In this document: positions 43,901 through 46,900 of the stretch, piece by piece
Layout: every line of letters starts with the position of its first letter
Position numbering within the stretch: the first letter of the stretch is position 1
From: Leptodactylus fallax
Taxonomy: Eukaryota > Chordata > Amphibia > Anura > Leptodactylidae
NCBI GenBank assembly: GCA_947044405.1
Contig: CAMRHE010000115.1
Location: 3,658,001-3,722,000 of the forward strand
Direction: 5' to 3'
Length of the DNA: 64,000 nucleotides
Program-made: the position numbers and the translations under genes
The notes under the pieces: generated by a model
What the model was told of the DNA's origin: nothing
The model's database searches: none
What the model saw: the letters and a program-made list of their open reading frames with translations, nothing else

Positions 43901-46900
43901 TCCCCTGATTTCCCTATACTCCTCCTGACTAGGCCAAGTGTGCATGTGTTGTCAGTGGAGAGAGGGAAGTAAGGCACAGTCAGAAACACCTGGTGACAGT
44001 GTATATCCCCCGAGAACATAAGGATTGGGTGTTAAAATTCAATATGTCTGATCCCTCTGATGTCATCTATCTAAAGAAAGTTGGGAGGTCCCCCCAAAAA
44101 ATAGTCCTCAGTGCCTGTCGAAAATGGTGGGTTCAGCTATCTTTTTAATTATGTGTATGGGGCGTGGCATACAGGGTTATCCCCATGTTGGCAAATTGCT
44201 GCAGAAATGTGAATAACTGCTCCCAAGTCCCAGCCCCTGGGAACAGTGGGCTCCGTTGCTCTACACTATTCCTGTAAGTCCCATAGTGGAGAATGGGAGC
44301 TACAGAAATAATGCACCAAAGCTGAAGGATAGGAGCAGTTACTGCCATCTCAGCAACAATCTGAACTCACTGTAGTAGTAGGAATGGCTAGTATACAGGG
44401 CCGTAAAGTGGTACAGGCATGCTACACCAGCAAAAGTATGGAGTAGCGTTGTTCTAAAAGTATGTTGGTTATCATCTTCTCTACATGAATTCCAAGTACA
44501 ATGCCATGAATAACACAGCCTTGGACTGGAGCCAGCTTAGTATGAAGGAATGTCTGAAATATGGAGGAAGTCTTCTGGGAAACTCGTGCAATTATGTGCC
44601 TGACCTGGCGCTAATGTCCTTCATCCTTTTCTTTGGGACCTATTCTATGACCTTAACGTTGAAGAAATTCAAGTTCAGCCGATATTTTCCTACCAAGGTA
44701 AGGAGACTTACATCCTTTTTGTCCAGGCTGTATCACATTCGGTAGTGGCCTACATAGAGGTCAGGGTAGCCCATGTCCTTTTCATTGCTGAAATATTTTC
44801 TTGTTTGCTAACATAACTGCACATGTGGAAACCAGATTCACAAACAAGACTTCACCACCCATTAAAATGGAGAAAGGCCAACTAGTATTGAGCATTTATC
44901 TACAGGCTCCATAGTAGCCACATAGTTTGTCTTTATGGTATTCTCATACTTAATGGTTGGGGGTCAAACTATACTGCAGTATAATAGTATATTTAACATG
45001 ACATAATAAGTTCTTGTAACTATATTGTATTCTGTTTTTTCATGTGGACCAACGAACTCACTTTGTGTGTACCACGTAGACCCTGTAGAACCTTTGATCA
45101 TTGTATTCTTGTTGACCACCCTTTTTTTACCTGTTTCCTCAGCTTCGCACCCTGGTGTCTGATTTTGCAATTGTCTTCGCCATCCTCTTCTTCTGTGGTG
45201 TGGATGCATATTTTGAGCTGGAGACACCAAAATTGCATGTTCCTAGTGAAATTAAGGTTGGCCCTCTGGTGTTCTTCTCCTGTCCTATGTCTACGTCAAT
45301 CCTATACCCTTAACATTCCTCCTGTTTATTGTAGACCTATTGTAAGTAGGATGTAGACTGACAGATAGAGGGATATAGTAGTAGATATATTGAATATTTG
45401 TGATCTTTTCTAACTCTTTTTCTAACTTTCCCTCTTCTTCTTTTGTACATGCTGCATTTATAAGCTTCGTAAACTTATTAGTGACTTCTCAATCTTCGTG
45501 TCTATTCTGATGTTTGTTGGTCTGGACATGCTCTCTGGATTAAATACTCCTAAACTTCAAGTGCCTACTGAGTTTAAGGTAAAGAATGGGATAAGAAAGA
45601 CTAGTGCATACTGGGCTAATAGACACCTACAGCTGTATGCATAAGGAAATAGTGAAATCACAATGGTAACATTCCACCCATTAGATAGACATTAGCCTAG
45701 CTCCGATATAAGTTACTAATATGTCAAAATATTTAATAGGCTACTAAAAAGACCAAAGGACTACCAAATTATTAACAGACTTTTAACTTAATTATTTAAG
45801 GATAAAAATCCCTTAAAGGGAGTCTGTCAACAGGATGAAACTTAACACGGTTAGATAGGTCAGGCCCACCTAACTTATTTATTTCACAATATGCAAATGA
45901 GCAATCTGGAGAACCGAGGACGGCTCCATTGCACTAAACTTTTATGCCCCACACTGCTCTAATACGCTGGCGCTTGAATGAGATCACAGGGCCAGGTGAG
46001 ATTTCAACATAGCTCCCTGGCCCTGTCACTCAAAGTAGGGAGGAGGGAAAGAAAGAAGACATATTAGAGCAGTGTGGAGCAGAGCATTATGGAGCAACAG
46101 AGCAGCCCTCGGTACTCTAAACTTTCCATTTGTATATTCTGAAATATTCTGAAACAGAGGCAGAAATTTTGATAAGGAAAAATGAATTACATTCAGGTGA
46201 GCCTGACCTATCTATCTGTGGTGCTGGTATAATATGCTTCACCCTGGACCCTGTATAACAGCATCAAGAGCACTAAAGGACCAGAAAACAAGGACTAGTA
46301 TTAGAAGGTTTCTGTACTGTTGTTTTATAGGTGGACATTTTTGATATTGATGACCTTCTTTAGGATAGGTCATCAATATCAGATTGGTAGAGGTCCAGCA
46401 GCTGGCACCCCTGCTGATCAGCTGTTTGAAGAGCTGCAGTGCCCAGATGAATACCATGCACAGTACTGTACATTGTGTTGGGGCTGTGCAGGGTATTGCA
46501 GCTCAGCCCCATTCACTTGAATGGGACTGAACTGCGAAGAGGCCACATGATGAAAGAATGTGACATCATTGGCATGTGACGTGGAAGGGGCTCTCACCCA
46601 AGTGTTGATGCTGCTTCTAACAGATGATCTGTAGAGGTCCAAGGTATCAGACAACACTAATCAGATATTAATAACCAATTGTAATATTTTTTTCATTAGG
46701 CATTGTATTCCACTGTAAAATGCTTACAAGTCAATATACATTGTACTTAAACTTTATTCTTTTTCTAGCCAACAAGATCAGACCGTGGCTGGTTTGTTTT
46801 CCCTTTTGGGAAGAATCCTTGGTGGATTTATCTGGCCAGTGCGTTACCTGCTCTGCTGGTGACAATTTTGATTTTTATGGATGAGCAGATTACAGCGGTC

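What the first reader, a model, noticed from the sequence alone, without database searches (positions are those of the whole stretch)
45143..45578. Tandem duplicated, probably mutually exclusive exons encoding one transmembrane helix of slc4a5
Two 114-nt exons, 208 bp apart, both phase 0/0, both open, both with GT-AG sites, encode alternative 38-residue versions of the same helix (21 identical). Version a resembles mammalian SLC4A5; version b differs at many membrane positions ([13 protein letters not shown] against [13 protein letters not shown]) while keeping SDF, TPKL, VP and the final K. Purifying selection on b is suggested because it has kept length, frame, splice sites and the family motif. 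Choosing a or b would change the membrane core next to the ion pathway. I know of no such pair in mammalian SLC4A5, but I cannot search.
Basis: partly seen in the sequence, partly recalled or inferred. Interest (0 to 1): 0.88.

Follow-up and report, generated by a model that had tools for sequence, protein, structure and literature searches.

The report
Ancient either-or exon in bicarbonate transporter
This frog transporter gene (slc4a5) carries two neighbouring versions of one exon for the same membrane helix; both versions occur from sharks to platypus, and animals likely use one or the other to make two forms of the transporter.

Summary
Exons a (45143-45256) and b (45465-45578) are 114 nt each, open, phase 0/0, GT-AG, 208 nt apart, 21 of 38 residues shared, in an open slc4a5 gene. 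The pair is neither young nor frog-specific: 108 of 287 examined homologues hold both, a before b, in cartilaginous fish, bony fish, frog, squamates, turtles, birds and platypus. Residue 18 is Cys in 115 of 115 distinct a peptides, Val in 59 of 59 b peptides. In three frogs, annotated isoforms of equal length differ only inside these 38 residues. A 4186-nt frog-like contig encodes a b-only protein, so b is almost surely spliced without a. Listed placentals carry a (78 of 88; 10 lack the exon); four of four listed marsupials carry b. Strict exclusivity is unproven: all 87 listed teleost models hold both, in a list that favours such proteins. The exon matches TM7 of the gate domain, beside the dimer-interface PIP2 site, not the listed ion-pathway helices. 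A basic residue at that site is always present in b, usually absent in a. A tuning role is likely but untested. My open-literature searches found no description.

The parts
44497..44697 (+). constitutive upstream exon, ends ...YFPTK, phase 0
   Evidence: same flank in homologues
45143..45256 (+). exon a, 38 codons, [38 protein letters not shown]; the only version in listed placental mammals
45257..45464 (+). 208-nt intron between a and b; weak 3' splice site (AAG), branch-point-like A at 45413 and 45425
45465..45578 (+). exon b, 38 codons, [38 protein letters not shown]; the only version in listed marsupials
46769..46930 (+). constitutive downstream exon, starts PTRSDRGW, phase 0
27737..52821 (+). 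slc4a5 gene model, 19 constitutive exons plus a or b, 931 open codons; N-terminal and last exons located but not joined

Best explanation
Exons a and b are a tandem exon duplication in slc4a5 that is likely at least as old as the ancestor of jawed vertebrates, they are likely spliced mainly as alternatives, and each is predicted to supply transmembrane helix 7 plus the following extracellular linker of the bicarbonate cotransporter NBCe2. Shown here: the pair, its order, its constraint and its wide distribution; annotated isoforms in three frogs that differ only in this exon; a b-only protein from a cDNA-sized contig. Inferred: the swap leaves the ion-binding core unchanged and alters the gate-domain helix that carries PIP2-contacting basic residues beside the dimer interface. 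This would tune how transport answers to PIP2 and membrane state. b keeps the basic residue at exon position 3 (AE1 R603), while a usually has Thr, Ala or Ser.
For: Both exons in 108 of 287 proteins (plus one abab model), order a-b in all 108, first copy Cys18 and second Val18 in 108 of 108. Version-specific residues: C18 115/115 a against V18 59/59 b; K3 59/59 b against 6/115 a; F11 58/59 b against I/V 115/115 a. Equal-length isoform pairs differ only inside the exon in X. laevis (18 changes), Hyperolius (19) and Aquarana (19); Paroedura and Pyxicephalus also have a-only and b-only isoforms that differ elsewhere too. b-only protein P0107 comes from a 4186-nt contig, too short for unspliced coding exons that span 25 kb here. 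The five slc4 paralogue exons found in the same genome are single between their flanking exons. Silent sites saturated, protein kept. Gate domain and PIP2 contacts: passages of PMC5834491, PMC10810954, PMC13263692. Register: NBCe1 680-716 at E 4e-8; AE1 601-639 listed at E 2.5, so that register leans on the shared motif.
Against: All 87 listed teleost models, 7 of 7 cartilaginous-fish models and 15 others carry both exons. One search, which supplied nearly all of them, ranks double-copy proteins first; in the lists, which hold no teleosts, 5 of 120 and 5 of 120 carry both. Double inclusion is not excluded. No enforcing mechanism was found: frame kept with both or neither; candidate branch points 157 and 169 nt from the 5' splice site. 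No reads, tissue data or transport assay. PIP2 regulation is not shown for NBCe2 in the papers seen; the 2026 review doubts that all resolved PIP2 sites regulate, and reports that PIP2 inhibits AE1. Six of 115 a peptides also have K3. The structure model was unusable. Most isoforms are database annotations.
Confidence: 0.8

Rival explanations
1. The exons are not strictly exclusive: in some lineages, teleosts above all, both are joined, which adds a second copy of the helix and makes an inactive or regulatory product.
For: 87 of 87 listed teleost models and 7 of 7 cartilaginous-fish models hold both; both together stay in frame.
Against: ranks two-copy proteins first (109 of its 120). In the lists only 5 of 120 and 5 of 120 hold both, though these lists hold no teleosts. 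An extra membrane-crossing helix would flip the rest of the protein, as PMC5740500 argues for helix-coding exons in general (passage).
Confidence: 0.12
2. Exon b, or a in some lineages, is a copy that is hardly ever used and is kept in gene models by prediction software.
For: b has the second lowest 3' splice-site score of 19 exons (AAG, 0.1, recalled matrix). Many models are predicted isoforms.
Against: b is more conserved than a between 28 of 28 pairs of taxa (104 of the 108 ab proteins). Silent sites are saturated. A b-only protein comes from a cDNA-sized contig. The exon at 44497, shared by the isoforms, scores lower still (-2.9).
Confidence: 0.04
3. The choice between a and b changes trafficking or dimer contacts rather than lipid-tuned transport.
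For: In AE2 the loop EL4, which by topology follows TM7, takes part in the dimer interface, and TM7 holds the PIP2 there; neutralising R932 also lowered surface expression slightly (passages).
Against: Nothing here separates the two readings; the change at a PIP2-contact position speaks mildly for lipid tuning.
Confidence: 0.3

Closest known systems
NKCC2 (SLC12A1) exon 4 variants B, A, F
   Same: Tandem homologous exons in a vertebrate ion cotransporter, one used per transcript, coding one transmembrane helix plus a loop; variants also in shark (PMC7818487, passages).
   Different: Different family. In NKCC2 the exon sets ion affinity, shown by mutants; here the helix is in the gate domain and no function is measured.
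Human tandem duplicated exon substitution events (236 in 214 genes, PMC9741552) and human mutually exclusive exons (PMC5740500)
   Same: Mostly ancient, homologous, tandem, frequent in membrane ion transport (passages).
   Different: Those catalogues are human-based. Listed placental SLC4A5 proteins carry only a, so the pair would not be seen there. 'SLC4' does not occur in either held main text; their supplements were not searched.
NBCe2 (SLC4A5) splice variants NBC4a-g
   Same: Same gene; cassette epsilon is the only optional cassette in the SLC4 membrane domain named in PMC4664831 (passages).
   Different: Cassette epsilon is an optional 16-residue insert; the present pair swaps 38 homologous residues, and 'mutually exclusive' does not occur in that review.

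Membership tests
mutually exclusive tandem duplicated exons | adjacent, homologous, same length and phase, open, splice sites on both sides | tested here: met
mutually exclusive tandem duplicated exons | isoforms that differ only by swap of the exon | tested here: met
   three frog species with equal-length isoform pairs; annotation, reads not seen
mutually exclusive tandem duplicated exons | never both together in one transcript | tested here: inconclusive
   109 of 287 models hold both, 12 neither; no RNA reads available
mutually exclusive tandem duplicated exons | both copies under long purifying selection | tested here: met
[quoted passage not shown]
   97% identity to frog cotransporter 4 proteins; domains found on its homologue P0108
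young non-functional exon duplication | absent or broken in relatives | tested here: not met
[quoted passage not shown]
   best motifs 157 and 169 nt from the 5' splice site; another at 57 nt has AGs between it and the acceptor

The most novel reading that the evidence does not exclude
A splicing switch older than jawed vertebrates, and perhaps older than the split of slc4a4, slc4a5 and slc4a9, swaps the PIP2-contacting gate helix of an electrogenic bicarbonate transporter; therian mammals lost it in opposite ways, placentals keeping only a and marsupials only b, so human NBCe2 is one half of the ancestral pair.
Probability: 0.3. Interest if true: 0.82.

Novelty: new member of a known kind. 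Interest (0 to 1): 0.66.

Why it matters
The NBCe2 studies seen here are on human and mouse, whose listed proteins carry only version a. If most other jawed vertebrates switch between two TM7 helices, the gate domain and its lipid site are a natural point of control, and the opposite states of listed marsupials and placentals are a ready-made comparison. It offers paired isoforms, equal except for one helix, to ask what TM7 does in an SLC4 transporter, as the NKCC2 exon-4 variants did for ion affinity.

Tried and rejected
Young or broken duplication: rejected. Chance similarity: rejected. Same duplication in paralogues of this genome: not found for the five paralogue exons that the genome searches returned; the AE-type genes and slc4a11 did not appear and were not examined. 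Frame-shift or NMD policing of double inclusion: rejected, all four combinations stay open. Steric block by a close branch point: not supported. Structure model of a b-only protein (P0120, 34 rows): mean pLDDT 34, pTM 0.19, not used as evidence; no fold search was made. Tree: 38 columns only; b was not resolved as one side of a branch (one-clade test p 0.588); a plus b as one clade against the paralogues was rejected at p 0.009, which I treat as a hint. dN/dS across frogs and a search for decayed exons in therian genomes were not possible with the data held.

Full report
What is there. The window holds most of a frog slc4a5 gene on the + strand. I located exon-like frames from 8076 to 58500 and joined 27737 to 52821: 19 constitutive exons plus a or b give 931 open codons either way. 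The 775-codon piece from exon 30835 on, with a, is 97% identical to annotated 'electrogenic sodium bicarbonate cotransporter 4' of Eleutherodactylus, Leptodactylus and Dendropsophus, so the source is probably a hyloid frog (my inference).

More than chance, and old. Each peptide finds the other in the 64 kb window at E 4e-10. Between a and b 66 of 114 nucleotides agree, 23, 30 and 13 of 38 at the three codon positions; of 21 shared residues only 5 share the codon. Silent positions are close to random while the protein is kept. In the same genome (2.5 Gb) the searches returned five further slc4-type exons; each is single between its flanking exons, apart from short weak matches. So among the genes seen, the tandem pair is peculiar to slc4a5.

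Distribution. Three database searches listed 120 proteins each; the union, P0003 to P0289, is 287 proteins, and I classified all of them. By taxon, assigned by me from the species names in the listings: teleosts 86 ab and 1 abab of 87; cartilaginous fish 7 ab of 7; gar 1 ab and 7 a; sturgeon and paddlefish 3 a and 7 b; bichir 3 a; lungfish 1 a; frogs 20 a, 11 b, 1 ab, 1 without; one frog-like unnamed sequence b; salamander 1 a; caecilians 2 a; squamates 5 a, 4 b, 3 ab; turtles 8 a, 1 b, 2 ab, 1 without; birds 6 a, 4 b, 7 ab; platypus 1 ab; marsupials 4 b of 4; placentals 78 a and 10 without of 88. In all: a 134, ab 108, b 32, without 12, abab 1. These are proteins, not species; several are isoforms of one gene. 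The sample is biased: one search scored a region of isoform b and ranks proteins with two copies first (1158 hits, 120 shown: 108 ab, 1 abab, 11 b). The lists, ranked on long stretches, hold 93 a, 11 b, 5 ab, 11 without, and 87 a, 27 b, 5 ab, 1 without; they hold no teleosts. Clusters at 90% identity may hide further isoforms, so 'marsupials b only' and 'placentals a only' are statements about the listed representatives.

Two lasting identities. In 108 of 108 ab proteins the first copy has Cys and the second Val at position 18, and 107 of them join directly. Among 115 distinct a and 59 distinct b peptides: position 18 C 115/115 against V 59/59; position 3 K in 6/115 against 59/59; position 11 I or V in 115/115 against F 58/59; position 32 H 107/115 against I or Q 58/59; position 37 I 105/115 against F 46/59. 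The class was assigned by similarity, but the order in the ab proteins is independent of it. In 3 of 104 ab proteins (those with clean flanks) the a-b identity reaches the best a-a or b-b identity to another taxon. b is the better conserved of the two in 28 of 28 pairs of taxa: for example bird against cartilaginous fish, a 0.67, b 0.82, upstream exon 0.89, downstream exon 0.90.

Where the duplication falls. In a tree of 54 exon peptides all 26 a rows lie on one side of a branch (93/90). The slc4a4 and slc4a9-like exons join the a side (88/86), the slc4a7/8/10-like exons share F11 and V18 with b, and a plus b as one clade is rejected (p 0.009); b as one clade is not rejected (p 0.588). With 38 columns this is only a hint that the duplication came before slc4a4, slc4a5 and slc4a9 parted. 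The paralogue names are my reading from similarity.

Evidence of alternative use. Xenopus laevis P0246/P0250 (1127 aa, 18 changes), Hyperolius P0237/P0119 (1129 aa, 19) and Aquarana P0240/P0115 (1136 aa, 19) are annotated isoforms that differ only inside this exon. Pyxicephalus and the gecko Paroedura also have a-only and b-only isoforms, which differ elsewhere too. P0107, 98% identical to the window's b region, comes from a contig of 4186 nt that encodes 1121 residues; coding exons spread over 25 kb cannot fit without splicing, so this is a spliced b-only RNA or a copy of one. Against strict exclusivity stand the ab models, most of all in teleosts. I found no enforcing mechanism: both or neither stay in frame, and the better branch-point motifs are 157 and 169 nt from the 5' splice site. 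The b 3' splice site scores second lowest of 19 (0.1) and the a 5' splice site fourth lowest of 19 (5.1), with a recalled matrix; joining the two would pair weak with weak, which I offer only as an idea.

What the exon does in the protein. Its peptide aligns with NBCe1 680-716 (E 4e-8 to 7e-8) and, for b, with AE1 601-639 in a weak listing (E 2.5; another band 3 chain E 0.43, with Arg at exon positions 2 and 3). In NBCe1 the gate domain is TMs 5-7 and 12-14, the ion pathway TMs 1, 3, 5, 8, 10, 12 and EL7 (PMC5834491, passages). In AE1 PIP2 touches K600, R602 and R603, in AE2 R930 and R932 of TM7; R932A and R932H lower AE2 activity, and without PIP2 the inner half of TM7 shifts 6.2 A towards the core (PMC10810954, passages). 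A 2026 review places the headgroup under TMs 6 and 7, finds the site in NBCe1 simulations, reports inhibition of AE1 by PIP2, and states that functional PIP2 regulation is unambiguous only for AE1, NBCe1 and NBCn1 (PMC13263692, passages). By the AE1 register exon position 2 is R602 (Arg in all 115 a and 59 b) and position 3 is R603 (Lys in all 59 b; Thr, Ala or Ser in 96 of 115 a); the K600 position is the last residue of the shared upstream exon. Hence the proposal, untested, that exon choice tunes lipid control or the dimer interface. His32 of a, on the extracellular side by topology, could add pH sensing; this is speculation.

Comparison and novelty. It works like the NKCC2 exon-4 swap (PMC7818487, passages). 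PMC5740500 argues that helix-coding exon pairs can hardly be cassettes because both or none would flip the rest of the protein (passage). 'Mutually exclusive' does not occur in the held main text of the SLC4 review PMC4664831, the 2026 SLC4 review PMC13263692, which has no splicing words at all, the sea bass slc4 paper PMC7692064 or the mouse Slc4a5 splicing paper PMC8875008. Searches with slc4a5 and 'mutually exclusive exon' gave 0 papers, with 'mutually exclusive' 3 that are unrelated by title; one search gave 0, and the listings show none on it by title. Of the nine papers I looked into three. Subscription papers and supplements were not searched. I therefore call it a new member of a known kind.

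Noticed in passing
window 32902-33870 and 56691-57776 (+): Two open frames (323 and 362 aa) with Tc1/mariner-type transposase domains PF01498 and PF13358, one inside an intron of slc4a5 and one between its located C-terminal exons.
   Followed up: partly
window 50644-51715 (+): A third transposase-like stretch in two overlapping frames; the first frame has only weak HTH matches.
   Followed up: no
window 58420-58500 (+): A last-exon-like frame that ends GSETTL, like the consensus C-terminus in the alignment; its splice junction was not settled.
   Followed up: no
P0164, P0195, P0219, P0220, P0225, P0230-P0234, P0236, P0264: Twelve annotated SLC4A5 models skip this exon altogether, which would remove TM7; ten are placental, one turtle, one Xenopus laevis.
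   Followed up: partly
window 44497 and 45465, 3' splice sites: Two neighbouring exons, the first shared by the isoforms, use an unusual AAG acceptor.
   Followed up: no
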